From the NCBI RefSeq assembly GCF_008727875.1, contig NZ_VTWS01000012.1, forward strand, positions 62,001 through 126,000: a stretch of 64,000 nucleotides of DNA, written 5' to 3'. The notes below the pieces were generated by a model, which was not told the origin of the DNA, did no database searches, and saw nothing but the letters and a program-made list of their open reading frames with translations. Below, piece after piece: positions 19,184 to 46,013 of this stretch. Made by a program: the position numbers and the translations under genes. Each line of letters opens with the position of its first letter. Positions within the stretch are counted from its first letter, which is position 1. The stretch is from Larkinella humicola (GTDB lineage: Bacteria; Bacteroidota; Bacteroidia; Cytophagales; Spirosomataceae).

Positions 19184-19297
19184 ACCGCTCCCGCCGGGCT
19201 GGTGTGGAACGTTCAGCGTTTTCCGGGATTCCCTATAAACTTTCAACCGGTTTCCGGGTTAGGAGTGTATAGGGACTCTTTATTTCCAGAACATTCC

Positions 19298-20101: not shown

Positions 20102-20120
20102 TCGGACAAACCCCGCACCC

Positions 20121-21134: not shown

Positions 21135-21154
21135 TCGTATACTGAATCAATTTC

Positions 21155-26638: not shown

Positions 26639-26643
26639 AGAAT

Positions 26644-26711
26644 GCCCCCAACCCCCTAAAGGGGGCTTTGAGAATCCAGATTTATATAATCCCCTTTAGG
26701 GGGTTGGGGGC
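26644..26711. repeat. Inverted repeat, family A copy 2
   Basis: The arms GCCCCCAACCCCCTAAAGGG (starting 26644) and its complement (ending 26711) belong to the 'CCAACC' subtype. The loop contains ATCCAGAT. It lies between co-directional genes and ends 14 nt before the next start codon. Confidence 0.9.
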
Positions 26712-26725
26712 AAAATTCCAATACC

Positions 26726-29700: not shown

Positions 29701-29878
29701 GGCGGTTCAGCTCGACCTGACCAAAGCCGCCGGTTCTTTTTCCGTACATTCCATACACCCGAAAACCGGTCAGATCGTGAAATCAAAAGAGGGGATCAAG
29801 GGGGGAAGTGTGGTCAGTCTGAGCAAGGCGACAGAAGGCGCGGAAGTGATCTGGGTTAAAAAGAGCAAGGGATTATGA
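26726..29878 (+). CDS. Large secreted protein: beta-helix domain fused to TIM-barrel-like glycosidase region
   Basis: This 1050-residue protein begins with GTG at 26726 and has a signal peptide (about residues 1-25, ending VCAQ). Residues about 40-560 read as a right-handed beta-helix of the pectate-lyase superfamily (KGDATRRIQAAIDYV, VLRGSGMGTGGTTILG, ENVQDAWVRQVVFRHF). The C-terminal half, about 600-1050, looks like a TIM-barrel glycosidase with LIHENYFQHNIIEAGAHY and QLIGAEFTGPLSF, ending in a small beta domain. I believe it corresponds to the DUF4955/DUF6298 group found in pectin clusters of Bacteroidota, but I cannot check that. The catalytic type is unknown; a debranching role is inferred from the neighbours. 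It overlaps the next gene by 4 nt (ATGA). Confidence 0.75.
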   Translation: MYKPSLFIALFSLFFAFWRFGAVCAQGSKPVKKQPVAPGPQGRLVYEPDERGNRISDFSYCGYQAGNQSIPDIVIRVVVPFRKGDATRRIQAAIDYVSTLPINANGFRGAVLLDKGVHEVSGHLKITASGVVLRGSGMGTGGTTILGTGFSRDNLLTISGKSDRQTAETGPITDGYVPVNALKIHAGKPTTFKVGDFVQIRRPSTKAWIQQLGTDHFGGGITSLGWKPGQRDLVWDRQITAVNGSELTLDAPLTTALDSAFGGGTIARYTWPGRIAQSGVENLQFISSYDKANPKDEDHRWMAIVLENVQDAWVRQVVFRHFAGSAVFVQETAKRITVEDCQSLEPVSEIGGERRNTFLVRGQQILCQRLYAEHGYHDFAVGYCSAGPNAFVQCESHLPFSFSGSVDSWASGVLFDLVNIDGNALRFSNLGQDGQGAGWNAANSVFWQCTAARVECYQPPTAQNWAFGTWAQFAGDGFWDLSNEHIQPRSLYYAQLKDRLGDGVAARTILLPVESEASSSPKVEVAAALTKQAVNPAPTLYDFITAASQRQPIPTATKVKSIDAIGLPKETALAKAEPMQIQQGKLVRGSTLVAGRRQEVPWWNGSARPHGLANAKLHITRFVPGMTGLGLTDDLAIMTDSMKAENTVAIDHNYGLWYDRRRDDHERIRRMDGEVWPPFYELPFARSGRETAWDGLSKYDLTKYNPWYWSRLKQFADLADQKGLTLIHENYFQHNIIEAGAHYADFPWRPVNNINQTGFPEPAPYAGDKRIFMAEQFYDVSHPVRRALHRAYIRQCLANFATNSGVIQLIGAEFTGPLSFVQFWIDTISEWEKETGQKAVVGLSTTKDVQDAILADTKRASVIDLVDIRYWHYQADGTVYAPAGGQNLAPRQHARLLHPKKSSFEQVYRAVRDYHRKFPDKAVTYAADHADALAWAVLLAGGSMPNLPVVADPQFLADVAQMQPVDVPQKPAGQWAMGNEKTGYILYTESAGAVQLDLTKAAGSFSVHSIHPKTGQIVKSKEGIKGGSVVSLSKATEGAEVIWVKKSKGL

Positions 29879-31779
29879 AAAGTAAAATAGCCCCCAACCC
29901 CCTAAAGGGGACTTTAAAAAAGTCGGCTTTTAAAGCCCCCTTTAGGGGGTTGGGGGCTATTTTACTTTTCCTCACCCACGTTCACGCGCAGGACACGGTG
30001 CGCTACGTGGGGCAAACGCTTTCCAACGTCGATTACCACCACGGGCAGTTGAGTCCGGCGGTGGGTGTGCATAACATGCAGGTGTTTCGGGCGAACCGCG
30101 AGCACCCGGAGTTGGCCGGGGGCACCCACTGGACCTACAACCATGCGCCGATGCTGGCCTACTGGAACAACACGTTTTACCTGCAATACCTCAGCAATCC
30201 GGTGGGCGAACACGAACCGCCGGGCCAAACGCTGCTGCTGACCTCGAAAGACGGTTATAACTGGACGAAACCTACAGTTCTTTTTCCGCCGTATAAACTG
30301 CCGGATGGCTGGAAAAAACCGGGTCGCCCCGAGGTGGCAAAAGATCTGTACGCGGTGATGCACCAACGCATGGGCTTCTTCGTGGCGAAAAACAAAAGGC
30401 TGCTGACCCTGGCTTTTTACGGCATTGTGATGGGGCCGAAAGACGATCCGAACGATGGCAACGGCATTGGCCGCGTGGTTCGGGAAATCTACGCCGATGG
30501 GAAATTTGGACCGATTTATTTCATCCGGAATAATGCGTCCTGGGACAAAACCAAATCGGCCTACCCGTTCTATACCAGCTCGAAAGACAAAGGCTTTGTG
30601 GAAGCCTGTAACGAGCTGCTGGCCAACACGCTGATGATGCAGCAATGGATCGAAGAAGCCGACCGCAACGACCCACTGGTTACACTCAAAAAAGAAGTGA
30701 AAGCCTTCAGTTATTACCATTTGCCGGACAAGCGCGTCGTGGGATTGTGGAAGCACGCCCTGACGACGATCAGCCCGGACGAGGGGCAAACCTGGTTGTA
30801 TAACCCGTTGCGGGCACCCGGTTTTGTGAACAGCAACGCCAAAATCTGGGGGCAGAAAACGACGGATGGGCAATACGCGACGGTCTATAATCCCTCGGAA
30901 TTTCGCTGGCCGCTGGCGGTTTCGACCAGCAAAGACGGGCTGAACTACACCAACCTGCTATTGGTGAACGGCGAAATCACGACCATGCGCTACGGCGGAG
31001 CCTACAAGTCGTACGGGCCGCAGTACGTTCGGGGCATTGAGGAAGGCAACGGCACCCCGCCCGACGGCTCGTTGTGGGTGACCTACAGCATGAACAAGGA
31101 AGACATCTGGGTGTCGAAAATACCGGTGCCAATCACCGACCAGGTGACAACGCACCCCAATGAAATCTTCGCCCAATTGCCGGCCGGGGATGAACTGAAA
31201 TTCTGGAATCTTTACAGCCCGGTTTTCGCTTCGGCTAAAATAGAGTCCGTGGACGGAAGTAAAGCGCTGGTTTTGAGGGATAAAGATCCGTTCGATTACG
31301 CCAAAGCCGAGCGTGTGATTCCCGAATCGACGAAGCTGGCGGTCGAGTTTGCGGTGGTGCCGCAGCAGGCTGACAAAGGCAGTTTGCAGATTGAATTTCA
31401 GGATGCCAAAGGCAATGCCGCCGTTCGTTTGCTGTTCGATGCCGACGGTTTTTTCAAAGCCAAAGTCGGCTACCGCGATTCGCAGATTCAGAAATACGAA
31501 GCCGGAAAACCGGTGGTGGTGCGCATCGAACTGGACCGCGACAAGCGGATGTTCGTGGCCTTTGTCAACGGCCAGCCGAAAGGAAACCGCCTGTTTTTTG
31601 CGCCGGTCGCTTCGTTTCGGCGGGTCGTTTTCCGAACCGGCGGGGTGCGTCGTTTCCCGGATGCCGACACGCCGACTGATCAGAATTTCGATGTGCCTAA
31701 AGCGGGCGAGCTGCAACCGGAAGCGGTTTTTATCCTCAAAACCTTTAAAACGAGTGCGTTGCCAAGCCGGAGTGAATGA
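29875..31779 (+). CDS. Secreted beta-propeller protein of unknown function with repeat-derived N-terminus
   Basis: This 634-residue protein carries propeller-like blades (LLLTSKDGYNWTKP, TISPDEGQTWLYN, VSTSKDGLNYTNL) in residues about 60-420. A beta-sandwich-like C-terminus (about 430-620) follows, with RLLFDADGFFKAKVGYRD. It resembles BNR/sialidase-fold glycan-active enzymes, but I do not recognise the family. The N-terminus is odd: residues about 2-29 are translated from a family A palindrome (IAPNPLKG ... PFRGLGAI), which runs straight into the hydrophobic segment AILLFLTHVHAQ. The start codon overlaps the preceding stop (ATGA), so the annotated start is plausible; the only alternative I see is a TTG at 29950. 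It is co-transcribed with the beta-helix gene. Confidence 0.72.
   Translation: MKSKIAPNPLKGTLKKSAFKAPFRGLGAILLFLTHVHAQDTVRYVGQTLSNVDYHHGQLSPAVGVHNMQVFRANREHPELAGGTHWTYNHAPMLAYWNNTFYLQYLSNPVGEHEPPGQTLLLTSKDGYNWTKPTVLFPPYKLPDGWKKPGRPEVAKDLYAVMHQRMGFFVAKNKRLLTLAFYGIVMGPKDDPNDGNGIGRVVREIYADGKFGPIYFIRNNASWDKTKSAYPFYTSSKDKGFVEACNELLANTLMMQQWIEEADRNDPLVTLKKEVKAFSYYHLPDKRVVGLWKHALTTISPDEGQTWLYNPLRAPGFVNSNAKIWGQKTTDGQYATVYNPSEFRWPLAVSTSKDGLNYTNLLLVNGEITTMRYGGAYKSYGPQYVRGIEEGNGTPPDGSLWVTYSMNKEDIWVSKIPVPITDQVTTHPNEIFAQLPAGDELKFWNLYSPVFASAKIESVDGSKALVLRDKDPFDYAKAERVIPESTKLAVEFAVVPQQADKGSLQIEFQDAKGNAAVRLLFDADGFFKAKVGYRDSQIQKYEAGKPVVVRIELDRDKRMFVAFVNGQPKGNRLFFAPVASFRRVVFRTGGVRRFPDADTPTDQNFDVPKAGELQPEAVFILKTFKTSALPSRSE
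29878..29969. repeat. Inverted repeat, family A copy 3, inside a coding region
   Basis: Perfect 33-bp arms run from 29878 and to 29969. The inner 20 bp (CCCCCAACCCCCTAAAGGGG) is the family sequence, while the outer 12 bp (AAAAGTAAAATA) is not shared by other copies yet is still mirrored. The whole element lies after the ATG at 29875 and is in frame with the gene. Confidence 0.9.
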
Positions 31780-32547: not shown

Positions 32548-32593
32548 GTCGGGATTTGCAATCCCGACCCCATCTGTCAAGGATTTGTAATCC
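32548..32593. repeat. Small REP-like hairpins upstream of sialidase-like gene
   Basis: A perfect 10-bp stem GGTCGGGATT/AATCCCGACC with a 3-nt loop (32548-32570) is followed by GGATT-TGT-AATCC (32581-32593). Both carry the same GGATT/AATCC core. They end 10 nt before the start codon of the next gene. Confidence 0.75.
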
Positions 32594-32603
32594 GAATAAA
32601 ATC

Positions 32604-33737
32604 ATGATAAAGAGACGATTATATATAGTTTTTTTTGCCATTCTGTGTTTATTCACGAAAGCTTCAGCGCAACTCACCAAATGGCAATCGGGGCTGGTGG
32701 TCGATGAATTTGTAGTTGAAAAACCGCCTTTCCCGGAGAGCCACGCGGCCACCATCGCCGAAACCCCGACCGGTTTGGTGTCGGCCTGGTTTGGCGGCAC
32801 CAAAGAGCGGAATCCGGATGTGTGCATCTGGGTGAGTCGGCAGGAAAAAGGCAAGTGGCTGGCTCCGCAGAACGTGGCCAACGGCATTGTAAACGACTCG
32901 CTCCGGTATGCCTGCTGGAACCCGGTTTTGTACCAGATCCCGAAAGGCGACCTGATGCTGTTTTACAAAATCGGTCCCAGCCCGTCCAAGTGGAAAGGCT
33001 GGCTGAAAACCTCGTCCGACGGCGGGCGTACGTGGTCAGCCGCAAAACCGCTGCCCGACGGCTTCATCGGGCCGGTCAAAAACAAGCCGGTTTTGCTCGC
33101 CAACGGCAATTTGTTTTGCCCGACCAGCACCGAAGTCGACGGCTGGAAACTCCATTTCGAAGTCACCCCGGATTTTGGCAAAACCTGGCGAAAGATTGGG
33201 CCGATCAGCGATGGCCGAACCCTGAACGCGATTCAGCCCAGCATTTTGACCTACGGCAACGGGAAACTTCAGATTCTGGCGCGTAGCAAAGACCGCGCCC
33301 TGGTGGAATCCTGGTCGACCGATAACGGCGAAACCTGGTCACCTTTGGCCAAAACGGCCCTGCCCAACAACAACTCGGGCACCGACGCCGTCACGTTGAA
33401 AGACGGTCGGCAGGTGCTGGTGTATAACCACGTTCTACCACCCGGCGATCTGGCGAAAGGCCCCCGGACGCCATTGAATCTGGCGGTTTCGAACGACGGT
33501 AAAAGCTGGTCGGCCGCCGTAATACTGGAAGATTCGCCCATCAGCCAGTATTCGTATCCGTCAGTCATTCAGACGAGTGATGGCCTGATTCACGTGATTT
33601 ACACCTGGCGTCGGCAGAAAATCAAACACGCGGTGATCGATCCGGCCAAAATGAAGGCACGACCGATTGAAAACGGCGTCTGGCCCGCGCTGGAGGGATA
33701 TGCCACACCCGTCGCAAAAGAGAACACGAAAGAGTAG
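32604..33737 (+). CDS. Secreted sialidase-fold (BNR repeat) protein
   Basis: This 377-residue exported protein starts at 32604, just before a good signal peptide (RRLYIVFFAILCLFTKASAQ). The frame opens upstream at 32556, but that stretch is the REP-like hairpin. Four Asp-box motifs mark a sialidase-type beta-propeller: SSDGGRTWS, TPDFGKTWR, STDNGETWS and SNDGKSWS. The family (BNR_2) includes sialidases and relatives that act on other 2-keto-3-deoxy sugar acids. The gene ends 13 nt before an operon for acid-sugar breakdown, so release of an ulosonic or ulosaric acid such as Kdo or Dha from RG-II is an attractive reading, but it is inference. A classical arginine triad was not assigned with certainty. 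Confidence 0.75.
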   Translation: MIKRRLYIVFFAILCLFTKASAQLTKWQSGLVVDEFVVEKPPFPESHAATIAETPTGLVSAWFGGTKERNPDVCIWVSRQEKGKWLAPQNVANGIVNDSLRYACWNPVLYQIPKGDLMLFYKIGPSPSKWKGWLKTSSDGGRTWSAAKPLPDGFIGPVKNKPVLLANGNLFCPTSTEVDGWKLHFEVTPDFGKTWRKIGPISDGRTLNAIQPSILTYGNGKLQILARSKDRALVESWSTDNGETWSPLAKTALPNNNSGTDAVTLKDGRQVLVYNHVLPPGDLAKGPRTPLNLAVSNDGKSWSAAVILEDSPISQYSYPSVIQTSDGLIHVIYTWRRQKIKHAVIDPAKMKARPIENGVWPALEGYATPVAKENTKE

Positions 33738-33750
33738 CAACCTGGAACGA

Positions 33751-34899
33751 ATGACGCAGGAATTAACCATACACTTTCCCGGGAAACTGGTTTTTGGCAA
33801 GGGTTCGCTGGGGAATCTGGCCGGTGAGGTAATTCAGTTATCACCCCGCAACGTATTGCTGATCACGATCAGTCCGCTGTTGGGGGCGCTGAAAAATCTG
33901 GTGGAAGCGTTGGAATCCAGTCAGATAGTCGTAAAAATTGATACGAGTATTGTACAGGAGCCGTCATTTGCAGATTTCGACGCGCTGATGAAAACCGCAT
34001 TGCCGTTCAATCCCGATGTGGTGCTGGGCATTGGCGGGGGCAGCGTGCTGGATGTGGCCAAACTGGTGGCGGCTCAACTGGAAAATGACCAGACGCTCCC
34101 GGACATGCTCGGCATCGGTAACCTGAGCGGACGACGGAAGAAACTGATCTGTGTTCCGGCGACCTCGGGAACGGGCAGTGAGGTTTCTCCCAACGCGATT
34201 TTGGTGGACGATGCGGATAACCAGAAAAAAGGCATCATCAGCCCGTTTCTCGTGCCGGACATTGTGTACGTCGATCCGTTGCTGACGCTAAGTGTTCCTT
34301 CGGGCATCACGGCGGCTACGGGCATTGACGCGTTGACGCACTGCCTGGAAGCCTATACGAATCGATTTGCCCAGCCGTTCATCGACCTCTACGCGTTTGA
34401 AGGGATGCGCCTAATTGCCGCCAACATCGTGCAGGCCGTGAAAAACGGCGCGGACGAAGAAGCCCGGACGCAGGTGGCGATGGGCAGTTTGCTGGGCGGT
34501 TTTTGCCTGGGGCCGGTGAATACGGCGGGTGTTCATGCGCTGAGTTATCCGCTGGGGAGTCAGTTTCACCTGGCTCACGGTCTTTCCAACGCACTTTTGT
34601 TGCCTTACGTCATGGAATTCAATACGCCCGCTGCGGTTTCGCGGTACGCGCAAGTGGCCGTGGCGCTGGGGTGTGAGCGGGGGCGGGATGAAGCCGAAAC
34701 GGCCGCGAACGGGGTTCAGAAAATAAAAGAATTGATTCAGGAATGCGGGATTCCGGCCCGGTTGCGGGATGTTGGGATTCCCGAAGAAGCCCTTCCGCAA
34801 CTGGCGGATGATGCATTGAAAATTACCCGCTTACTGAAAAATAACCCGCGGGAGATCACCCGCGCGGATGCGATGGCCATCTATACAGCCGCTTACTAG
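33751..34899 (+). CDS. Iron-containing alcohol dehydrogenase (FucO/group III type)
   Basis: This 382-residue cytoplasmic oxidoreductase starts at ATG 33751; the open frame upstream overlaps the previous gene. The nucleotide-binding GIGGGSVLD (about residues 93-101) and PATSGTGSE (136-144) are typical. The iron ligands Asp193, His197, His262 and His276 match the pattern of FucO (lactaldehyde reductase). Group III enzymes interconvert small aldehydes and alcohols. The gene overlaps no neighbour but is only 2 nt from the aldolase-family gene, so an aldolase-made aldehyde is its likely substrate. I infer reduction of a tetruronate or lactaldehyde; the sequence does not fix which. Confidence 0.9.
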   Translation: MTQELTIHFPGKLVFGKGSLGNLAGEVIQLSPRNVLLITISPLLGALKNLVEALESSQIVVKIDTSIVQEPSFADFDALMKTALPFNPDVVLGIGGGSVLDVAKLVAAQLENDQTLPDMLGIGNLSGRRKKLICVPATSGTGSEVSPNAILVDDADNQKKGIISPFLVPDIVYVDPLLTLSVPSGITAATGIDALTHCLEAYTNRFAQPFIDLYAFEGMRLIAANIVQAVKNGADEEARTQVAMGSLLGGFCLGPVNTAGVHALSYPLGSQFHLAHGLSNALLLPYVMEFNTPAAVSRYAQVAVALGCERGRDEAETAANGVQKIKELIQECGIPARLRDVGIPEEALPQLADDALKITRLLKNNPREITRADAMAIYTAAY

Positions 34900-34901
34900 C
34901 T

Positions 34902-35822
34902 ATGAGCATGAAAAAGAAATACCGGGGTGTAGTGGTTCCGCTGGTGACGCCCCTGACCGAAGCCTATCGACTGGATGAAGCGGCTGTCGAGAAAATGCTG
35001 GCGAACCTGCGGGCCCATGCCTCCATGCCGTTTGTGCTCGGAACCACGGGCGAAGCGACTTCCCTTTCGGCGTCGGTGAAAAAAGCCTACGTCAAGGCTG
35101 CGGCCCGGTTGAAGACGTCCGATACGGTTTTGTACGCGGGCATTTCGTCCAATTGCCTGGAGGAATCGGTCGACTTTGCCAACTATTGTTTCGATCTGGG
35201 CGTCGATGCGGTGGCCGCTACGCTACCCTGCTATTACACCTTATCGGACGAACAGATGAAGCGGTATTTCGAGCAGTTGGCCGACCAGCTCAACGGGCCG
35301 CTCATCATGTATAACATTCTGGCGACCACCCGCATGTCGATTCCGGTTGCGGTCATTGATGAATTGAGCTACCACCCGAATATCGCCGGGATCAAGGATT
35401 CAGAACGAAACGCCGACCGCCTGGCCGAATCCCTGGCGTTGTGGGCTGGTCGTCCGGATTTTAGCCATTTCATGGGCTGGGCGGCCCGGTCGGCAGACGC
35501 TTTGCTGGCGGGGAGTGATGGACTGGTGCCGAGTACGGGCAATCTGTTGCCGGGCATTTACCGCGACATGCTAAAAGCCGTTCAGGCAGGCGATGCGGCA
35601 AAAGCCTATTATCACCAGAACCAATCCGACGCGTTCGGCCATCTTTACCAGGGTGGCCGCACGCTGGGCGAGTCTTTGTGGGCGCTGAAAGTGCTGATGC
35701 AGGAATACGGTTTGTGCGGAACCACCGTGATGCCGCCATTGCAAGCCCTTTCCGAAGCTGAGGAAAACCGGCTGAAAGTGGCGCTGGCCGAGGTGTTGGT
35801 GAAAGAGGAGATACAGCTTTAA
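34902..35822 (+). CDS. DapA/NanA-family aldolase (pyruvate-forming lyase type)
   Basis: The 306-residue TIM-barrel protein belongs to the dihydrodipicolinate synthase/N-acetylneuraminate lyase family. The pyruvate-binding GTTGE (residues 47-51), catalytic Tyr137 (MYNI) and Schiff-base Lys165 (AGIKDSE) are all present. The neighbours are sugar-acid catabolic genes, not lysine biosynthesis genes, so a role as aldolase on a 2-keto-3-deoxy sugar acid is more likely than DapA itself. Cleavage would yield pyruvate and an aldehyde for the dehydrogenase encoded 2 nt upstream. Candidate substrates are Dha, Kdo or KDG-type acids. The start could be ATG 34902 or 34908. Confidence 0.88.
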   Translation: MSMKKKYRGVVVPLVTPLTEAYRLDEAAVEKMLANLRAHASMPFVLGTTGEATSLSASVKKAYVKAAARLKTSDTVLYAGISSNCLEESVDFANYCFDLGVDAVAATLPCYYTLSDEQMKRYFEQLADQLNGPLIMYNILATTRMSIPVAVIDELSYHPNIAGIKDSERNADRLAESLALWAGRPDFSHFMGWAARSADALLAGSDGLVPSTGNLLPGIYRDMLKAVQAGDAAKAYYHQNQSDAFGHLYQGGRTLGESLWALKVLMQEYGLCGTTVMPPLQALSEAEENRLKVALAEVLVKEEIQL

Positions 35823-35838
35823 CGGATTACGGTTTTCC

Positions 35839-35928
35839 GTTTACGGTATTCGGTTTACGGTGGCTGACGCAAGAATGCCAATGCGTCAGCCACCGTAAAC
35901 CGTAAACTGAAAACCGAATACCGTAAAC
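35839..35928. repeat. Inverted repeat, family C copy 2
   Basis: The left arm at 35839-35871 (beginning GTTTACGGTATTCGGTTTAC) pairs with 35882-35900 at its inner end. The right side carries an extra CGTAAACTGAAAA unit before the outer part (ending 35928) resumes, so the stem has a bulge. It lies between the aldolase and pdxA genes and ends 31 nt before the next start. Confidence 0.85.
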
Positions 35929-35959
35929 CTACTACCGCAAACCCCCAAAAATAGAACCA

Positions 35960-37018
35960 ATGAGCACAGACTCCAAACCGATCATCGGCATTACGATGGG
36001 CGATCCGGCGAGTATTGGCCCCGAAATCGCGGTCAAGGCGCTATTGAACCCTGTTATTTACGACATCTGCCGTCCGATTCTGGTGGGTGACGCCCGGGTT
36101 TATGAAGATATTTCTTACCGGTTGAACCTAAAGGCGGTTATTCACCCGGTTGCCTCCGTTCAGGACGCCACGTTCCGGTTGGGAACGATCGATGTCTATG
36201 ACCTGGCGAACGTGGAGCTGGCGAACCTGCGATTCGGCGAAATCTCGGCGATGGCGGGGGAAGCGGCCTTTGCTTCGGTAAAAACCGTGATCGATCTGGC
36301 ACTGGCGGAGGAAATCGACGCGACGGTGACCGGTCCGATCAACAAAAAGTCGATTAACGAAGCCGGGCACCACTTTGCGGGTCATACCGAAATCTACGCC
36401 CACTTTACCCATACGAAGAAATACGGCATGTTGCTGGTCGAAGACAACCTGAAAGTGATTCACGTCTCGACGCACGTGTCGTTGCGGCAGGCCTGCGATC
36501 TGGTCAAAAAAGACCGGATCCTGGAAGTCATCGAACTGCTGCACAACGGGTTGATTTCGCTGGGCGAAACCAACCTGAAACTGGGCGTTGCCGGTCTGAA
36601 CCCCCACGCCGGTGATTCGGGCCTGTTCGGAACGGAGGACGACGAGGAGATTTTGCCCGCCGTTGAGGAAGCCAGACGACGCGGTTTCGACGTGGAAGGG
36701 CCGGTTCCGGCCGACACGCTGTTTTCTAAAGCCGCCACGGGCTATTACGGGGGCGTCGTGGCGATGTACCACGATCAGGGCCACATTCCGTTCAAACTGA
36801 CCGGTTTTCAGTGGAACGCGGCTAAAAAGCAGATGGATAGCGTCAAAGGTGTGAACATTACGATGGGATTGCCCATTATTCGTACCTCGGTGGATCACGG
36901 AACGGCGTTTGAAATTGCCGGAAAGGGCGTGGCGAGTCCGGATGCGATGGTGTTGGCGATTGAGTCGGCGGTGCAACTGGCGAAAAACCGGCGCAAGAAC
37001 TTGCTGCCAGTGGAATAA
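35960..37018 (+). CDS. pdxA2: PdxA2-type 4-phospho-sugar-acid dehydrogenase
   Basis: This 352-residue enzyme is of the PdxA fold. GDPASIGPEI (residues 15-24) and the metal-binding histidines 142 (GHTE), 172 (STHVSL) and 271 (YHDQGH) are intact. Ordinary PdxA oxidises 4-phosphohydroxythreonine in vitamin B6 synthesis. PdxA2 paralogues encoded next to DUF1537 kinases instead oxidise and decarboxylate 4-phospho-D-threonate or 4-phospho-D-erythronate to DHAP and CO2. The next gene is such a kinase, so the PdxA2 role is preferred. A family C palindrome lies upstream and a family A palindrome downstream. Confidence 0.88.
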   Translation: MSTDSKPIIGITMGDPASIGPEIAVKALLNPVIYDICRPILVGDARVYEDISYRLNLKAVIHPVASVQDATFRLGTIDVYDLANVELANLRFGEISAMAGEAAFASVKTVIDLALAEEIDATVTGPINKKSINEAGHHFAGHTEIYAHFTHTKKYGMLLVEDNLKVIHVSTHVSLRQACDLVKKDRILEVIELLHNGLISLGETNLKLGVAGLNPHAGDSGLFGTEDDEEILPAVEEARRRGFDVEGPVPADTLFSKAATGYYGGVVAMYHDQGHIPFKLTGFQWNAAKKQMDSVKGVNITMGLPIIRTSVDHGTAFEIAGKGVASPDAMVLAIESAVQLAKNRRKNLLPVE

Positions 37019-37093
37019 ACGCCCCTAAATCCCCTAAAGGGGACTTTCAAATCCGGATGCTTTAAGTCCCCTTTAGGGGATTTAGGGGCGTTT
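37017..37093. repeat. Inverted repeat, family A copy 4
   Basis: The family arms GCCCCTAAATCCCCTAAAGG and complement surround a loop with ATCCGGAT. The 4 bp outside each family arm (AAAC/GTTT) are also mirrored. The outermost bases overlap the pdxA2 stop codon, and the element ends 15 nt before the kinase start. Confidence 0.9.
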
Positions 37094-37108
37094 GCCTACT
37101 GTAAAACT

Positions 37109-38254
37109 ATGATCGCCGTCATTGCCGATGATTTAACGGGGGCCGCCGAACTGGGTGGAATTGGTCTGGCGTACGGCCTGGAGGTCGAGCTTTCGATGTC
37201 GGTCAATCTGCAATCGAAAGCCGATTTGCTCGTTATTTCTACCGACGCCCGCTCGGTTTCGGAGCCGGAAGCGGTACGGGAAATGACTGAAGTCAGCCGG
37301 GCTTTGCAGGAATTGAAACCGCTACTGATTTATAAAAAGATCGATTCGGTGCTGCGCGGGCATATTCTGGCGGAAACTCGCGCACAGTTGACCGTGCTGG
37401 GTTTGGCGAAGGCGCTGCTCGTTCCGGCCAATCCGGCGCTGGGACGAACGCTGGTTCATGGATGCTATTACGTTGATGGAAAACCGCTCCACCAGACGCA
37501 TTTCGCCCATGATCCGGAATTTCCGGTGACGGATTCCGACGTTCTGAAGCGGTTCAAGATCACGACTGAACCGGTTTTTGTTCGCAATCCTTCGGATGCA
37601 TTACCGAACCGGGGCGTTGTTTTTGGCAACGTTGAAAAATGGACGGATCTACAAGCCTGGGTCGAACGGATTGACCACCAGGTCCTGGCGGGGGGCGGTT
37701 CCGGTTTTTTTACGGCCATTCTGGATTCGCGGTTTCCGCCAAAACGGAAAACCGTAACGCCGGTTGCGCCGGGCAACACCCGCCTGTACGTCTGCGGCAG
37801 TGCGTTTAAAGAGAGCGTGGATTGGGTGAAGAAAGCCGTACATTCCGGGCATTTCGTGCAGTATATGCCCAAAGCACTACTGCAACCCGGCACGTTGGAT
37901 GAATCGAGCCGAACTACGTGGGCAACCGAAGTGGCGACGAGCCTTCAACAGCGAAAGCCGGTTGTGATGGCCATCGACCCCGCCTGGGTAGAGAATTCAT
38001 CGGCAGTTCAGTTGCGAACCGACCTGGCAAAAACCGTCCGGGACGTGCTGAACCGGACGCACATTGACGAACTGATCATCGAGGGCGGTTCCACGGCGTC
38101 GGCGGTTTTGCGGGAAATCGGCATTACGCGGCTGGCCCCGGTTGAGGAACTGGCGACGGGCGTGGTTCGCAGCAAAGCCATTGAAAAAACAGAGTTGCAC
38201 GTTACCGTAAAACCGGGAAGCTATCGCTGGCCCCCGGAATTGGGCCTATTTTAA
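37109..38254 (+). CDS. DUF1537 four-carbon acid sugar kinase (DtnK/DenK type)
   Basis: This 381-residue protein matches the DUF1537 kinase family, which phosphorylates four-carbon sugar acids at O4. The N-terminal sugar-binding half shows VIADDLTGAAELGG (residues 4-17), STDARSVSEPEA and YKKIDSVLRG. The C-terminal nucleotide-binding half shows IEGGSTASAVL (about 333-343). Characterised members are D-threonate, D-erythronate and 3-oxo-tetronate kinases. Pairing with pdxA2 is the known arrangement for D-threonate or D-erythronate use. It follows pdxA2 with only the palindrome between, and precedes a sodium symporter by 16 nt. The exact C4 acid is inferred, with D-threonate favoured for the reasons given in the findings. 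Confidence 0.88.
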   Translation: MIAVIADDLTGAAELGGIGLAYGLEVELSMSVNLQSKADLLVISTDARSVSEPEAVREMTEVSRALQELKPLLIYKKIDSVLRGHILAETRAQLTVLGLAKALLVPANPALGRTLVHGCYYVDGKPLHQTHFAHDPEFPVTDSDVLKRFKITTEPVFVRNPSDALPNRGVVFGNVEKWTDLQAWVERIDHQVLAGGGSGFFTAILDSRFPPKRKTVTPVAPGNTRLYVCGSAFKESVDWVKKAVHSGHFVQYMPKALLQPGTLDESSRTTWATEVATSLQQRKPVVMAIDPAWVENSSAVQLRTDLAKTVRDVLNRTHIDELIIEGGSTASAVLREIGITRLAPVEELATGVVRSKAIEKTELHVTVKPGSYRWPPELGLF

Positions 38255-38270
38255 TAAATTACTGAACCGA

Positions 38271-39860
38271 ATGCCAAATCCGACCCTGAGCCTAATCGAC
38301 TACCTGATCATCAGTGCGGTATTGCTGATCAACCTGTATTTCGGACTTCGGTATGCCCGGAATCAGCGCACGACGGAGACGTATTTTGCCGCCAAAGGCC
38401 GGGTTCCTGCCTGGGCCATTGGCATGTCGTTGCTGGCGACGCTCATCAGCAGCGTGACGTTTCTGGGTTACCCGAGTGAAGGCTTTTCGTCGAACTGGAT
38501 TCTGCTCGTCCAGGGTTTGATGGTGCCCATCGTGTTGCTCGGAACCATCTGGTTCATCGTGCCGCTGTACCGCAAAGTGATCGGCCTCAGCACCTACGAA
38601 TATTTCGAAAAACGCTTTGGTTCCTTTGCCCGGTATTACAGTTCCATCGCCTTTGTTCTCCGGCAGTTTTCATCGATGGGAACGGTTTTTTTTCTGCTGG
38701 CGGTCGCGCTGACCAACATGACCGGCGTTGATACGTTCTACATCATCATCGTCGTCGGGCTGATCATCATTGCCGTCAACCTGCTGGGTGGCATCGAAGC
38801 CGTGATCTGGCTGGATGTGTTTCAGGGCTTTATGCTGTTTGCCAGCGGTATTCTCTGTGTCACTGTCATCCTGTTTTCCGTCAAAGGCGGTTTTTACGAA
38901 GTTATCGAGGTGGCCTCCGCCAATGGTCGAACCGGTTTTGGCCCGTATGATCTGGATCTGACGAAGTTGACGTTTTTTGTCATGGTCATCAACGGTATGT
39001 TCTACGCCATTCAGAAATACGGCACCGACCAAACCGTTGTGCAGCGTTACCTGACGGCCAAAACCGACAAAGCGGCCATCAAAGCGTCGATTCTGGGCAT
39101 CTCGCTCACGGTGCCGGTTTGGGCGCTGTTCATGTTCATCGGAACCGCCCTGTTTGTGTATTATAAACAACAGCCATTGCCCGCGTCCATCCGCCCCGAT
39201 GCGGTTTTTCCGTATTTCATTATGACCCAATTTCCGACGGGCGTGGTCGGTTTCATTCTGGCCGCCATGATTTCAGCCGCTATTTGTAGCCTCAGCGCCG
39301 ATCTGAACGCGCTGGCGGCTGTCGGCTTGGAAGATTTCTACAAAAAATCACGCCCGGCTCGGCCCGATGCCGAATACCTGACCGTTAGCAAAGCCATTGT
39401 GGTGGCTTCGGGCCTGACCGCCATTCTGATCGGTGCCTTCTATCTGCGGGCTGGGAATGAGGGCGTTCTGGGGATTGTCTTCACACTATACGCCATTTTT
39501 TCGGGCGGCATTGTTGGTATTTTTCTGCTGGGGATTTTCAGTGCGCGGGCCAACCGGCAGGGCGTCAACATCGCCATTGTGGTGTGTATTCTGTTCACGG
39601 CGTATGCCTTTCTGACCTCCACCAAAATTGGTTATGGCAACGACAAAACGCTTTTACTCGACTTGGGTCAATACAATTTTACGCACCATAAACTGATGCT
39701 GGGCGTCTACAGTCACCTGGTTGTCATTGGCGTCGGGTACATTGCCAGCCTGTTTTTTCCAAAACCGACCCTGGATAAAAACCTTTTGTACAGCGGCTGG
39801 CGAGATTCGAAAACGGCGACTGTTAACGAGAGGTCAACGGGAAAGACGGTCTTTTTTTGA
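38271..39860 (+). CDS. Sodium:solute symporter (SSS family), acid-sugar operon
   Basis: The 529-residue inner-membrane transporter has about 13 hydrophobic helices. Family marks are GLRYARNQRTTETYFAAKGR near residues 24-43, WAIGMSLLATLISSVTFLGYP (about 45-65) and AAMISAAICSLSADLNALAAVG further on. SSS proteins import sugars, sugar acids or sialic-acid-like compounds with sodium. As the last gene of the dehydrogenase-aldolase-pdxA2-kinase run it most likely brings in the acid that these enzymes use. A second SSS gene lies in the leftward operon (56470-58047); the two differ in sequence, so they probably carry different sugars. Confidence 0.9.
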   Translation: MPNPTLSLIDYLIISAVLLINLYFGLRYARNQRTTETYFAAKGRVPAWAIGMSLLATLISSVTFLGYPSEGFSSNWILLVQGLMVPIVLLGTIWFIVPLYRKVIGLSTYEYFEKRFGSFARYYSSIAFVLRQFSSMGTVFFLLAVALTNMTGVDTFYIIIVVGLIIIAVNLLGGIEAVIWLDVFQGFMLFASGILCVTVILFSVKGGFYEVIEVASANGRTGFGPYDLDLTKLTFFVMVINGMFYAIQKYGTDQTVVQRYLTAKTDKAAIKASILGISLTVPVWALFMFIGTALFVYYKQQPLPASIRPDAVFPYFIMTQFPTGVVGFILAAMISAAICSLSADLNALAAVGLEDFYKKSRPARPDAEYLTVSKAIVVASGLTAILIGAFYLRAGNEGVLGIVFTLYAIFSGGIVGIFLLGIFSARANRQGVNIAIVVCILFTAYAFLTSTKIGYGNDKTLLLDLGQYNFTHHKLMLGVYSHLVVIGVGYIASLFFPKPTLDKNLLYSGWRDSKTATVNERSTGKTVFF

Positions 39861-39974: not shown

Positions 39975-42014
39975 ATGAACTTAACGCGATTTTTTTTAAC
40001 CCAAACGTTTACCGGCTTCGCGGTCGCACTCATTAGCCTCACCGCCCACGCCCAGCCGAACGCGCTGGTCAATACGGCACAGAGCCGGTTTGTGCGCTTG
40101 CAGGGCGTCAACCTGAACGAAGTGAGCTGGACAACGGGCTTCTGGGCCGACCGCTTTCAGGTGTGCCGCGACGCGATGGTGCCACAACTCTGGAAAACCT
40201 ATACCGATCCGAACCTGAGTCATTCCTACGAGAACTTCAAAATAGCCGCCGGACTGGCGTCGGGGAATTTTAAGGGGCCGTCGTTTCACGATGGGGATTT
40301 CTACAAAACACTGGAGTCGCTGGCCGGGATGTACGCGATGACCAGGGACAAAAAGCTCGATGCGTTGATGGATGAGGCCATTGCGGTCATCGGCACGGCG
40401 CAAACAGCCGATGGGTATATTTACACCAAAGCCATCATCCAGCAGAAAAAAAGCGGTGAGAAAAAGATGTTCGATGATAAGCTGAGTTTTGAGGCTTACA
40501 ACTTCGGACACCTGATGACGGCGGCTTGCGTGCATTACCGCGCCACGGGAAAAACCGCCCTGCTCGACATCGCTAAAAAAGCGACGAATTTCCTGATCGG
40601 TTTTTACAACAACGCCAGCCCCGAGCAGGCCCGAAATGCCATTTGTCCGTCTCATTACATGGGCATCATCGAGATGTATCGCACCACCCGCGAACCCGCC
40701 TATCTGGCACTGGCCCAGAAACTCATCGACATTCGGGGCCTGTCGGAAGGAACGGATGACAACTCCGACCGTGTGCCGTTCCGAAAAATGACCAAAGTGA
40801 TCGGTCACGCCGTTCGGGCCAATTACCTCTTTGCCGGAGCCGCCGACGTTTTTGCCGAAACCGGCGACAGCACGCTGTTGTCGACCCTAAATTTGATGTG
40901 GGACGACGTGGTCAACCACAAAATGTACGTCACCGGTGGCTGCGGGGCCTTGTACGACGGCGTGTCGCCCGAAGGCACGGCGTACAAACCCGATACCGTT
41001 CAGAAAGTCCACCAATCCTACGGCAAAGCGTATCAGTTGCCCAACCATTCGGCTCACAACGAGACCTGCGCCAACATCGGCAATCTGCTCTGGAATTACC
41101 GGATGCTGCAAATTACCGGCCAGGCCAAGTACGCCGATGTGATGGAACTGGAATTGTACAACGGCATCCTGTCGGGCATCAGCCTGGACGGCAACACGTT
41201 TTTCTACACCAACCCCTTGAGCGCGTCCGACGATTATCCGTATGCCCTGCGGTGGATGGGTGGCCGCCAGCGGTACATCAGTAAGTCGAACTGTTGCCCG
41301 CCCAATACCGTGCGGACGCTGGCCGAAGTGAGCAGCTATGCGTATAGCGTGTCGGATAAAGGATTGTGGCTGAATCTGTTCGGGGCCAATCAACTGGCAA
41401 CGACGCTGAAAGATGGCTCGGCGATTCGGCTGACGCAGGAAACCGCGTATCCGTGGGACGGCCTGATCAAACTCCGGTTGCAACAGGCTCCGGCGAAACC
41501 GTTTTCGGTCTTTGTCCGCATTCCGGGCTGGTGTCAGGGCGCGACGATCAGGGTGAATGGCGTGGCGGTTTCGGCCGTGATCCGATCCGGCGAATACGCC
41601 GAACTGAACCGGAGCTGGAAAGCGGGCGACAAGGTCGAAATCAGCCTGCCGATGCCGGTGAAACTGCTGGAAGCGAACCCACTGGTGGAGGAAACCCGCA
41701 ATCAGGTGGCCGTGAAACGCGGGCCAGTGGTGTATTGCCTGGAATCGGTCGATAATCCGGGTACCAAACTGACTACGCTGGCTCTTTCCGCTAAAAACGA
41801 CTTAAAACCGAAGCTGATGACCCTTGAAAACACCGAACTGATGGCGTTGGAAGGTACGGCGCAACAGACGGAAAACCGGTCCTGGACGAACCAGTTATAC
41901 CGGGAAGTGTCGGAAAAAGCACCGGTTGCCAAAACCATTCGCCTGATTCCGTATTATGCCTGGAGCAACCGGGGCCGTTCCGAAATGGCCGTCTGGATTC
42001 CGTTGATTCGGTAG
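39975..42014 (+). CDS. Secreted GH127 beta-L-arabinofuranosidase
   Basis: The 679-residue enzyme has a signal peptide (about residues 1-27, ending AHAQ) and an (alpha/alpha)6 barrel. The zinc and nucleophile residues of GH127 are all present: HNETCA gives Glu363 and Cys365, and SNCCPPN gives Cys440 and Cys441. Other family marks are EAYNFGHLM, VTGGCGALYDGVSPEG and FVRIPGWC in the C-terminal beta domain. GH127 enzymes remove terminal beta-L-arabinofuranose; one RG-II member removes aceric acid. It directly follows the acid-sugar operon. Beta-L-arabinofuranose is the cap on Dha in RG-II side chain D, which fits the Dha proposal. Confidence in the family is high; the natural substrate is inferred. 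Confidence 0.9.
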   Translation: MNLTRFFLTQTFTGFAVALISLTAHAQPNALVNTAQSRFVRLQGVNLNEVSWTTGFWADRFQVCRDAMVPQLWKTYTDPNLSHSYENFKIAAGLASGNFKGPSFHDGDFYKTLESLAGMYAMTRDKKLDALMDEAIAVIGTAQTADGYIYTKAIIQQKKSGEKKMFDDKLSFEAYNFGHLMTAACVHYRATGKTALLDIAKKATNFLIGFYNNASPEQARNAICPSHYMGIIEMYRTTREPAYLALAQKLIDIRGLSEGTDDNSDRVPFRKMTKVIGHAVRANYLFAGAADVFAETGDSTLLSTLNLMWDDVVNHKMYVTGGCGALYDGVSPEGTAYKPDTVQKVHQSYGKAYQLPNHSAHNETCANIGNLLWNYRMLQITGQAKYADVMELELYNGILSGISLDGNTFFYTNPLSASDDYPYALRWMGGRQRYISKSNCCPPNTVRTLAEVSSYAYSVSDKGLWLNLFGANQLATTLKDGSAIRLTQETAYPWDGLIKLRLQQAPAKPFSVFVRIPGWCQGATIRVNGVAVSAVIRSGEYAELNRSWKAGDKVEISLPMPVKLLEANPLVEETRNQVAVKRGPVVYCLESVDNPGTKLTTLALSAKNDLKPKLMTLENTELMALEGTAQQTENRSWTNQLYREVSEKAPVAKTIRLIPYYAWSNRGRSEMAVWIPLIR

Positions 42015-44371: not shown

Positions 44372-44416
44372 AGCTAATATGGTATAATTATGGGAGAAAA
44401 TGGTACAGATACCGAG

Positions 44417-44437
44417 CAAATTTACAGACTATATTTG
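44417..44437. promoter_or_regulatory. Back-to-back -7 promoter boxes for divergent glycosidase genes
   Basis: On the minus strand TAAATTTG (44424-44417) and on the plus strand TATATTTG (44430-44437) both match the Bacteroidota -7 consensus exactly, only 5 bp apart. A GTTG lies 18 nt upstream of the minus box as a weak -33; no good -33 was found for the plus box. Transcripts would start near 44410 (-) and 44444 (+), which supports the internal start codons chosen for both genes. Confidence 0.5.
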
Positions 44438-44462
44438 TGAAGCAACGGGCATAAAACGGCGA

Positions 44463-46013
44463 ATGATACAATACAGAAAAACGGTTGGCGTGGTGTGGTT
44501 GATCGGGTTGTTGCAGACTACGGTTTGTCTGGCTCAATCGGCAAAAATGCTGTCGACGGAGACGTTGAAAAACTACGTAACCTCCTTTAATTCCATTGAT
44601 GACGAAGCGGTCATAAACCACGTTCCGAATGCGGAGTCGTTCGACTGGCTTTCCCGGAACATTCCGCTTTTTGACTGCCCGGATTCGACGCTTCAAACCG
44701 TGTATTACTACCGCTGGTGGTCGTTTCGAAAACACCTGAAACGAACGCCGGAAGGCTATATTTTTACGGAGTTCATCACGAAAATGAACCACGCCGGCAA
44801 ATACAACGCCATCAGCAGCGCGTTGGGCCATCACATTTACGAGGGGCGCTGGCTGCACGATCCGCAGTACATCGATGACTACATTTCGTTCTGGCTCTAC
44901 GTCGATCCGAAACACACCGCCCCCCGGTTTCACGCGTTCAGTAGCTGGGTCGATGACGCCGTTTACAACCGGTATCTGGTCAATCTGGATAAACCCTTTA
45001 TTCAAAAGAACCTGCTGGCGCTAGATGCTGATTACCGCAAGTGGCAGCAGGAGAAGCAGTTAGCCAGCGGTTTGTTCTGGCAGTTTGACGTGCGGGACGC
45101 CATGGAAGAATCGATCAGTGGCTCGCGGAAAGATAAAAACCGGCGTCCGACCATCAACAGTTACATGTATGGCAATGCCAAAGCCCTGGCAGACCTGGCG
45201 GCTCTGGTCCACAACGATACGCTCCAAAACCGCTACCGGCAACTGGCCGCGTCGCTGAAAAAACTGACCCTGGATAGTCTCTGGAACGCGGAGGATCGGT
45301 TTTTTGAAGTGAAATCCCCCAAAGGTAGTTTTGCCAACGCCCGTGAAGCCATCGGTTTCATTCCCTGGTATTTTGACCTGCCCGACGACAGCCCGACTTA
45401 TGCCCGGCAGTGGGACCTGTTGACCGACACGACCGGTTTTTCAGCACCCTGGGGGCTGACCACGGCGGAACGTCGCCACCCGCTTTTCCGAACCCACGGT
45501 TCCGGCCACGGCTGTGAATGGGATGGGCCGGTCTGGCCATTTGCCACGACGCAAACGCTGAAAGCGTTGTCGAATCTACTGACGAAATACAAAAATCAGG
45601 GGCGCATGACGAAGGCGGTTTTTTACGATGAGTTGCAGAAATACGCCCGGTCGCACACGATGAACGGAACGATTTATTTGGGTGAGTATCAGGATGAAAA
45701 AACCGGCGAATGGCTGAAAGGCGATAATCCCCGCAGCAAATTTTATAACCACTCCGGGTTCGCGGATCTGATCATCAGCGACCTGGTTGGGCTGAAACCC
45801 CGCGCTGATGATGTGCTGGAAATTCATCCGCTGATTCCCGACCACTGGGACTGGTTTTGTCTGGATAATGTGCTGTATCACGGAAAAATCCTGACGATTT
45901 TGTACGACAAAGCCGGAAAACGCTACGGAAAAGGCAAAGGATTTCGGGTGTTTGCGAATGGAAAGGAAGTGATCCGGACGGGGAAAGTAGGGCCGGTGAG
46001 AGGGAAGTTTTAA
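44463..46013 (+). CDS. Secreted (alpha/alpha)6-barrel glycosidase (MGH1/GH63-like)
   Basis: The 516-residue protein starts at ATG 44463, directly before a signal peptide (RKTVGVVWLIGLLQTTVCLAQ region). An upstream ATG at 44400 lies before the likely transcription start. The body is an (alpha/alpha)6 barrel of the kind found in mannosylglycerate hydrolase-like and GH63 enzymes: TVYYYRWWSFRKHL, INSYMYGNAKALADLA, EAIGFIPWYFDLP, CEWDGPVWPFATTQTLKAL and HPLIPDHWDWFCLDN. The acidic residues in CEWDGPVW and in the DVRDAMEESISG region are catalytic candidates. RG-II and pectin clusters use helical-barrel enzymes for beta-L-arabinofuranose and other caps, but the substrate here is not known. A family A palindrome follows the stop. 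Confidence 0.75.
   Translation: MIQYRKTVGVVWLIGLLQTTVCLAQSAKMLSTETLKNYVTSFNSIDDEAVINHVPNAESFDWLSRNIPLFDCPDSTLQTVYYYRWWSFRKHLKRTPEGYIFTEFITKMNHAGKYNAISSALGHHIYEGRWLHDPQYIDDYISFWLYVDPKHTAPRFHAFSSWVDDAVYNRYLVNLDKPFIQKNLLALDADYRKWQQEKQLASGLFWQFDVRDAMEESISGSRKDKNRRPTINSYMYGNAKALADLAALVHNDTLQNRYRQLAASLKKLTLDSLWNAEDRFFEVKSPKGSFANAREAIGFIPWYFDLPDDSPTYARQWDLLTDTTGFSAPWGLTTAERRHPLFRTHGSGHGCEWDGPVWPFATTQTLKALSNLLTKYKNQGRMTKAVFYDELQKYARSHTMNGTIYLGEYQDEKTGEWLKGDNPRSKFYNHSGFADLIISDLVGLKPRADDVLEIHPLIPDHWDWFCLDNVLYHGKILTILYDKAGKRYGKGKGFRVFANGKEVIRTGKVGPVRGKF

What the first reader, a model, noticed from the sequence alone, without database searches (positions are those of the whole stretch)
33751..39860. Candidate operon for catabolism of the RG-II sugar Dha (3-deoxy-D-lyxo-heptulosaric acid) through D-threonate
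Seen: iron alcohol dehydrogenase, DapA-family aldolase, PdxA2-type dehydrogenase, DUF1537 kinase and sodium symporter, all in one direction and tightly spaced. Known: DUF1537 kinase plus PdxA2 converts D-threonate or D-erythronate to DHAP and CO2; DapA/NanA-family enzymes cleave 2-keto-3-deoxy acids to pyruvate. Inference: aldol cleavage of Dha between C3 and C4 gives pyruvate and a C4 aldehyde acid that keeps C5 and C6 of Dha. Reduction of that aldehyde by the iron dehydrogenase gives D-threonate by Fischer analysis, exactly the substrate of the DtnK/PdxA2 pair. I know of no described Dha catabolic route. A sialidase-fold gene upstream and a beta-L-arabinofuranosidase gene downstream fit release of Araf-capped Dha.
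Basis: partly seen in the sequence, partly recalled or inferred. Interest (0 to 1): 0.86.

Follow-up and report, generated by a model that had tools for sequence, protein, structure and literature searches.

The report
Candidate operon digesting plant sugar Dha
A five-gene bacterial operon sits beside the enzymes that cut the rare plant cell-wall sugar Dha off pectin, and most likely breaks Dha down into ordinary central-metabolism compounds, a fate for this sugar that we did not find described.

Summary
The five genes are real, at the stated coordinates, all on one strand: iron alcohol dehydrogenase, DapA-family aldolase, PdxA2-like dehydrogenase, short DUF1537 kinase, sodium symporter. The window is an RG-II locus. 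The cassette recurs across Bacteroidota and its aldolase forms one clade. In three genome samples, leaving out the window and one sampling centre, 13 of 15 cassette genomes carry the Dha hydrolase family, against about 3-8% of the others; in a similarity-ranked set, 33 of 34. In two genomes Dha hydrolase, arabinofuranosidase and the five genes form one contiguous run. Three cassette genomes with the Dha hydrolase family lack aceric acid hydrolase. By Fischer analysis the aldol product of Dha reduces to D-threonate, the expected substrate of this kinase/dehydrogenase pair. Against this: two sampled cassette genomes lack the hydrolase, many hydrolase genomes lack the cassette, and nothing was assayed. 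Verdict: strong candidate for a Dha catabolic route, built from known enzyme families.

The parts
29875..31779 (+). GH143-type Dha hydrolase (N-terminal half of BT1020 as a stand-alone protein, 634 aa)
   Evidence: PF24067 BT_1020-like propeller 423 bits, Sialidase-like_CBM 215 bits; PDB 5mqr residues 24-612, 774 bits
31834..32529 (+). DUF3826 protein, also near cassettes elsewhere; role unknown
   Evidence: PF12875 221 bits; also near cassettes in L086, L087, L103
32556..33737 (+). BNR_2 sialidase-fold-like protein directly upstream of the cassette; role unknown
   Evidence: PF13088 314 bits; lacks parts of the sialidase signature in the alignment (read by eye)
33751..34899 (+). Iron-containing alcohol dehydrogenase; proposed D-threuronate reductase
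   Evidence: ADH_Fe_C 191 bits, Fe-ADH 133 bits; metal-ligand motifs visible (motif recalled)
34902..35822 (+). DapA-superfamily (class I) aldolase; proposed Dha aldolase
   Evidence: PF00701 148 bits; Lys165, Tyr137, Thr48, Thr49 invariant in 29 of 29; one clade of 35 cassette aldolases, support 100/100
35960..37018 (+). PdxA2-like dehydrogenase; proposed D-threonate-4-phosphate dehydrogenase (decarboxylating, gives DHAP)
   Evidence: PF04166 340 bits; PdxA2 structures 264-267 bits against about 184 for PdxA1, best hit 4jqp 285 bits
37109..38254 (+). Short DUF1537 kinase; proposed D-threonate 4-kinase
   Evidence: SBD_N 131 bits, NBD_C 45 bits; NCBIfam D-threonate kinase 122 bits, below its cut-off of 450
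38271..39860 (+). Sodium:solute symporter; proposed Dha importer
   Evidence: SSF 122 bits, TIGR00813 sss 211 bits over cut-off 184
39975..42014 (+). GH127, matches aceric acid hydrolase; neighbouring RG-II enzyme, not part of the Dha route
   Evidence: NF049879 1159 bits, cut-off 950
44400..46013 (+). GH142-type beta-L-arabinofuranosidase (C-terminal half of BT1020 as a stand-alone protein)
   Evidence: PDB 5mqr residues 618-1092, 559 bits
48154..53258 (+). SusC/SusD-like outer-membrane pair of the locus
   Evidence: TonB plug, CarbopepD_reg_2 and SusD domains

Best explanation
The window is an RG-II utilisation locus that carries a dedicated catabolic operon for Dha, the acid of RG-II side chain D. 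Outside the cytoplasm the GH142 protein removes the L-Araf cap and the GH143 protein releases Dha. The symporter imports Dha. The DapA-type aldolase forms a Schiff base with C2 of Dha and cleaves C3-C4 to pyruvate and D-threuronate. The iron alcohol dehydrogenase reduces the aldehyde to D-threonate. The DUF1537 kinase makes D-threonate 4-phosphate, and the PdxA2-like enzyme oxidises it at C3, losing CO2, to DHAP. Shown here: gene content, family membership, conserved catalytic residues, co-occurrence and linkage with the Dha hydrolase family. Inferred: every substrate and reaction, the direction of transport, and operon transcription.
For: (1) Both halves of BT1020, matching the enzyme described as removing Araf and then Dha from chain D (PMC6811678, passage read; that paper does not name BT1020 in the passage, the link is by PF24067's name, PDB 5mqr and recall), lie in the window as separate genes on either side of the cassette. 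(2) In L263 and L264 the order is GH143, GH142, (LacI in L263), aldolase, symporter, Fe-ADH, PdxA, DUF1537: one contiguous same-strand run. (3) GH143 given cassette: 4 of 4 in the window's order sample (strong GH143 in 23 of 241, window excluded); 2 of 4 in the phylum sample (21 of 391, window excluded); 7 of 7 in the sample around G267 (15 of 294, centre excluded). One-sided Fisher p: 6e-5, 0.015, 2e-10, ignoring shared ancestry. (4) Ranked set: 33 of 34 cassette genomes GH143+, against 0 of 16 Firmicutes-type sets and 2 of 30 PdxA controls, 1 of them over cut-off. (5) GH143 lies on the same contig within about 20 kb of the cassette in at least 10 of those 34. (6) Three GH143+ cassette genomes (G352, G274, G275) have no match to aceric acid hydrolase. 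(7) Fischer analysis gives D-threonate, matching the kinase/PdxA2 pair (hand check).
Against: No enzyme assay. Two sampled cassette genomes, G393 and G491, lack GH143, and G273 of the ranked set lacks it too. Many GH143 genomes lack the cassette: 19 of 24 in the order sample, 19 of 22 in the phylum sample, 8 of 16 in the G267 sample. Fe-ADH was not found in L101, L109, L120 and L260 (in L109 hardly any upstream sequence is held). In L050 an IlvD/Edd-type sugar-acid dehydratase lies just upstream, which would suit a different 2-keto-3-deoxy acid. NCBIfam equivalog cut-offs for D-threonate kinase (122 of 450) and D-threonate-4-P dehydrogenase (304 of 583) are not met. Co-occurrence alone ties the cassette to RG-II users, not to Dha.
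Confidence: 0.8

Rival explanations
1. The cassette belongs to RG-II use but handles another rare RG-II sugar (aceric acid, Kdo or apiose) rather than Dha.
For: The next gene downstream matches aceric acid hydrolase, and 30 of 42 cassette genomes tested have such a hydrolase over cut-off.
Against: Three GH143+ cassette genomes have no aceric acid hydrolase match. GH143 and GH142 head the contiguous runs in L263 and L264. Apiose has its own long-DUF1537 plus RuBisCO-like cluster in relatives. Aldol cleavage of Kdo gives arabinose and needs no C4-acid kinase; aceric acid is not a 2-keto-3-deoxy acid (established chemistry). Linkage to a Kdo hydrolase was not tested.
Confidence: 0.1
2. A more general 2-keto-3-deoxy sugar acid or D-threonate/D-erythronate pathway, only loosely tied to RG-II.
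For: G393 and G491 have the cassette without GH143; in L215 it lies next to a sulfatase and an FGE/BNR_2 protein; IlvD/Edd gene in L050.
Against: 13 of 15 sampled cassette genomes have GH143. Dha also occurs in scales and thecae of green algae (PMC10762512 passages), so GH143-negative cassettes could still serve Dha.
Confidence: 0.08
3. The aldolase step is right but the reductase is a different enzyme, or the Fe-ADH acts elsewhere (for example on lactaldehyde).
For: Fe-ADH not found in four cassettes (L101, L109, L120, L260); NCBIfam lactaldehyde reductase (236 bits) outscores 4-hydroxybutyrate dehydrogenase (214 bits), and the top model is ErcA (256 bits), all under cut-off.
Against: Fe-ADH is present in 29 of 34 ranked cassette loci (two of the five misses, L090 and L117, are cut by contig ends) and in 6 of 7 further loci.
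Confidence: 0.15

Closest known systems
D-threonate pathway (DUF1537 kinase DtnK + PdxA2; Zhang 2016, recalled, paper not held)
   Same: Same two enzyme families in adjacent genes; same proposed intermediate and product
   Different: Here an aldolase, an Fe-ADH and a symporter are added, the kinase is a short (381 aa) subtype, and the locus is tied to RG-II
4-hydroxy-2-oxo-heptanedioate catabolism (retro-aldol to pyruvate + succinate semialdehyde; recalled)
   Same: Same logic: a C7 2-oxo dicarboxylate cleaved to pyruvate and a C4 semialdehyde acid
   Different: Dha carries two more hydroxyls (C5, C6); the semialdehyde is proposed to be reduced rather than oxidised
Sialic acid catabolism (sialidase, transporter, NanA; recalled)
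   Same: Sialidase-fold hydrolase, transporter and DapA-superfamily aldolase for a 2-keto-3-deoxy acid
   Different: 23-25% identity to the NanA chains listed; no amino-sugar genes in the cassette
D-apionate catabolism (RuBisCO-like protein; Carter 2018, seen as a citation in PMC6302742; its DUF1537 kinase recalled)
   Same: A DUF1537 kinase serving a rare RG-II sugar, linked to RG-II genes
   Different: Different, long DUF1537 subtype; RuBisCO-like partner instead of the cassette's aldolase and PdxA
BT1020 of Bacteroides thetaiotaomicron (PDB 5mqr)
   Same: Both halves present
   Different: Split into two genes flanking the cassette in the window

Membership tests
GH143 Dha hydrolase | BT1020-type N-terminal propeller plus CBM | tested here: met
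   423 and 215 bits; 774 bits to 5mqr over residues 24-612
GH143 Dha hydrolase | catalytic Tyr-Glu pair and Dha hydrolysis | not tested
   residue numbers not at hand; no assay
GH142 beta-L-arabinofuranosidase | similarity to the BT1020 C-terminal half | tested here: met
   559 bits, 5mqr 618-1092
DapA-superfamily class I aldolase | Schiff-base Lys, Tyr and TTGE motif | tested here: met
   K165, Y137, T48, T49, E51 in 29 of 29 (roles recalled)
True DapA (dihydrodipicolinate synthase) | Arg at the E. coli Arg138 position (number recalled) | tested here: not met
   Thr142 in 27 of 29, Met in 2 (aligned with DapA chains); TIGR00674 137 of 206 bits
PdxA2 / D-threonate-4-P dehydrogenase | closer to PdxA2 than to PdxA1 | tested here: met
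   264-267 against about 184 bits; best hit 4jqp 285 bits bears the generic PdxA name
PdxA2 / D-threonate-4-P dehydrogenase | NCBIfam equivalog cut-off | tested here: not met
   PRK03371 304 of 583 bits; generic TIGR00557 pdxA 330 of 290 is met
DtnK D-threonate kinase | both DUF1537 domains | tested here: met
   SBD_N 131, NBD_C 45 bits
DtnK D-threonate kinase | NCBIfam equivalog cut-off | tested here: not met
   122 of 450 bits; the best stretch covers only residues 2-153
Fe-ADH (group III alcohol dehydrogenase) | Asp and His metal-ligand motifs | tested here: met
   DALTHCLEA and HALSYPLG..FHLAHGLSNA in the sequence (motif recalled)
Dha catabolic pathway (proposed) | co-occurrence and linkage with Dha hydrolase family | tested here: met
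Dha catabolic pathway (proposed) | activity on Dha, D-threuronate and D-threonate | not testable with these tools
   needs assays
D-apionate pathway | RuBisCO-like protein with long DUF1537 | tested here: not met
   none among the window genes scanned; the kinase is the short type

The most novel reading that the evidence does not exclude
This is a first complete catabolic route for a natural heptulosaric acid. It is carried as a patchily distributed cassette across Bacteroidota and Ignavibacteriota, serves Dha from both plant RG-II and green-algal scales or thecae, and has an independently assembled counterpart in Firmicutes that uses a different DapA-type aldolase with the same three partner families.
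Probability: 0.45. Interest if true: 0.85.

Novelty: new variant of a known kind. Interest (0 to 1): 0.75.

Why it matters
[quoted passage not shown] A defined five-gene set with a predicted intermediate for every step makes the question directly testable. It gives a genomic marker that may separate Dha users from mere Dha releasers. It also proposes substrates for a DapA-type aldolase clade, an Fe-ADH and a short DUF1537 kinase subtype that are otherwise annotated generically.

Tried and rejected
Rejected: GH127 as the Araf-cap enzyme (it fits aceric acid hydrolase). Rejected: the BNR_2 gene as the obvious Dha hydrolase; it has invariant R243, R304 and Y334, but His at the place of the first sialidase Arg and no obvious Glu partner in the Bacteroidota rows (read by eye, motif recalled). 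Rejected: counting long DUF1537 kinases as cassette members; of the long ones inspected, ten loci (L058, L059, L062, L064, L220, L221, L222, L223, L268, L272) hold a RuBisCO-like gene next to it, and none of these ten shows the cassette's aldolase, PdxA or Fe-ADH (Pfam confirmation for L220 only). Set apart: Firmicutes-type sets (aldolase about 25% identical, outside the cassette clade, GH143 in 0 of 16). The aldolase model (mean pLDDT 94.8) only showed the general DapA/NanA/YagE fold (best PDB hit 4xky, named dihydrodipicolinate synthase, 28% identity) and says nothing on substrate.

Rows dropped before counts: weak PF24067 matches (about 20-30 bits) were not counted as GH143: G048 and G133; G435, G451, G526, G607, G682; G706, G709, G868, G948; some of these are over the curated cut-off of 27 (so the tool's own tallies are 25 of 242, 23 of 392 and 19 of 295). 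All 21 DUF1537 hits were inspected in context in the end (one, L055, on a 4-kb contig); 5 are cassettes. G515 (201 bits), G854 (187 bits) and a second gene of G898 lie in a divergent DUF1537-PdxA pair without the aldolase and were not counted as cassettes; G854 has GH143, G515 does not. Of the 34 ranked loci, 27 show all four enzymes (26 by blastp, and L102, whose kinase is cut by a contig end); L090, L114, L116 and L117 show no aldolase, of which L090, L116 and L117 are near contig ends. L216 has no symporter next to its cassette. The samples and the ranked set are not fully independent: G232 and the genome of L098 share GH143 coordinates, and G267 is in both. Literature: the key papers Ndeh 2017 and Zhang 2016 are not held and are recalled only.
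Full report
Observation. The five genes are present, complete and on one strand, in the order Fe-ADH, DapA-family aldolase, PdxA, DUF1537, sodium symporter. The gaps are 2, 137, 90 and 16 bp, so a single transcript is plausible but not shown. The genome holds eight DHDPS-family genes and two PdxA genes, counting those of the cassette, so the cassette copies are extra paralogues.

The window is an RG-II locus. It carries GH106, GH141, GH95, GH2, GH39, two GH127 genes and a SusC/SusD pair, and one GH127 fits the aceric acid hydrolase model. Most important, the 634-aa protein upstream matches residues 24-612 of PDB 5mqr at 774 bits, and the 537-aa protein downstream matches residues 618-1092 of the same chain at 559 bits. 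Pfam calls the first half the BT_1020-like N-terminal propeller. PMC6811678 (passage read) says of the founding B. thetaiotaomicron GH143 enzyme that it is bi-modular, that one site releases L-arabinofuranose from RG-II chain D, and that the other, a five-fold propeller, then cleaves Dha from the backbone. That this enzyme is BT1020/5mqr is recalled; that the C-half is the arabinofuranosidase follows by elimination. So both chain D activities appear to flank the cassette as separate genes.

Chemistry. [quoted passage not shown] Cleavage between C3 and C4 leaves C4 as CHO, with C5 left and C6 right (D-threuronate). Reduction and renumbering from the carboxyl end gives C2 left, C3 right: D-threonate. 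This was checked by hand. The DUF1537 kinase plus PdxA2 conversion of D-threonate to DHAP is established knowledge (recalled). The PdxA of the cassette is nearer to PdxA2 structures (264-267 bits, one named D-threonate 4-phosphate dehydrogenase) than to PdxA1 (about 184 bits); its best hit, 4jqp at 285 bits, bears the generic name. The kinase scores best with the D-threonate kinase model but far below its cut-off, so it is not filed as a certified DtnK.

Aldolase. Lys165, Tyr137 and the TTGE motif are invariant in 29 of 29 cassette aldolases. The arginine of true DapA is replaced by threonine in 27 of 29. In a maximum-likelihood tree of 59 sequences the 35 cassette aldolases form one group with support 100/100; the 17 Firmicutes-set aldolases and the 7 own-genome paralogues lie outside (the bootstrap had not fully settled and several outgroup branches are long).

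Co-occurrence. (a) Order of the window, 242 genomes: strong GH143 in 24, DUF1537 in 17, full cassette in 5, all 5 with GH143; without the window 4 of 4, p = 6e-5. (b) Phylum, 392 genomes: strong GH143 in 22, cassette in 5, of which 3 have GH143; without the window 2 of 4, p = 0.015. (c) Order around G267 (the genome of L110, a Bacteroides MAG), 295 genomes: strong GH143 in 16, cassette in 8, all 8 with GH143; without the centre 7 of 7, p = 2e-10 (Fe-ADH missing in one, L260). Pooled, 13 of 15. GH143 is in 33 of these 34 genomes (miss: G273, Prevotella MAG), in 0 of 16 Firmicutes-type sets, and in 2 of 30 PdxA controls, 1 over cut-off. Set (d) is ranked by similarity, so it is supporting rather than unbiased. 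The Fisher tests ignore shared ancestry.

Linkage. Same contig and within about 20 kb of GH143: at least 10 of 34 in set (d) (L085, L086, L087, L088, L091, L101, L102, L103, L106, L157), and 3 of 7 in sample (c) (G755 about 16 kb, G796 about 8 kb, G881 about 7 kb). In L263 and L264 the genes run GH143, GH142, (LacI in L263), aldolase, symporter, Fe-ADH, PdxA, DUF1537 without interruption. In L157 a divergent GH143 (33% identity) directly follows the aldolase, and that genome has no aceric acid hydrolase match. These are the best reasons to choose Dha over other RG-II sugars.

Against. Many GH143 genomes lack the cassette (19 of 24, 19 of 22 and 8 of 16 in samples a, b, c), so there must be another fate for Dha in them, or none. 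G393 and G491 have the cassette without GH143; in L215 it lies beside a sulfatase and an FGE/BNR_2 protein. Their family member G352 has GH143 about 9 kb from its kinase gene. Since heptulosaric acid is reported in scales of prasinophytes and thecae of Tetraselmis (PMC10762512 passages), an algal Dha source is possible, but this is inference. An IlvD/Edd dehydratase lies upstream of the cassette in L050. Fe-ADH was not found in L101, L109, L120 and L260.

Separation from apiose. Long DUF1537 kinases in relatives can lie in RG-II loci too, but next to RuBisCO-like genes (ten loci; Pfam 202 bits for L220) and in eight of the ten an Asp/Glu racemase-like gene. RuBisCO-like enzymes acting on 3-oxo-isoapionate 4-phosphate in apiose breakdown are described (PMC6302742 passage; the kinase assignment is recalled). 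They are a different subtype from the short kinase here.

Novelty. Ten library searches showed no paper on Dha catabolism in their listings; one search found 55 papers with heptulosaric-type terms, of which 40 titles were shown. The library holds open-licence papers only, so a description elsewhere cannot be excluded. All enzyme families are known; the assembled route and its tie to GH143 are what appear new.

Noticed in passing
L058, L059, L062, L220, L221, L222, L223, L268: Long DUF1537 kinase with RuBisCO-like and racemase-like genes, several near RG-II genes, in relatives: likely D-apionate catabolism of RG-II apiose.
   Followed up: partly
L111, L119, L130, L134, L137, L138, L139, L145, L161: Firmicutes and Actinomycetota loci pair Fe-ADH, PdxA and DUF1537 with a different DapA-type aldolase (about 25% identity), eight of these nine with a BNR_2 protein; GH143 absent in these genomes. 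Looks like an independent assembly of the same pathway logic.
   Followed up: partly
32556-33737: BNR_2 protein directly upstream of the cassette, conserved in several relatives, with an incomplete sialidase signature; possibly a new activity on a ulosonic or ulosaric acid.
   Followed up: partly
L054:9361-11232 (G000 contig C18): Second, divergent GH143-like gene (43% identity to the window copy) in the same genome with no other window gene found by tblastn nearby; similar lone copies in L081, L082, L084. May have another substrate.
   Followed up: no
L215, L216, L217: Cassettes in one Bacteroidota family, two of three genomes without GH143, with sulfatases beside it in L215 and L217: possible use of algal Dha.
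   Followed up: partly
L050:13515-15245: IlvD/Edd-type sugar-acid dehydratase upstream of the cassette, which could feed another 2-keto-3-deoxy acid to the aldolase.
   Followed up: partly
24995-29878: PelZ-like pectate lyase homologue and DUF6298 protein recur together with GH143 or the cassette in other genomes (L066, L073, L074, L098, L106).
   Followed up: no
18167-23281: Fructose-bisphosphatase followed by a three-gene molybdenum hydroxylase set (2Fe-2S, FAD, MoCo subunits) upstream of the RG-II genes.
   Followed up: no
2423-4828: Protein that joins a polysaccharide deacetylase domain to a GH39 domain.
   Followed up: no
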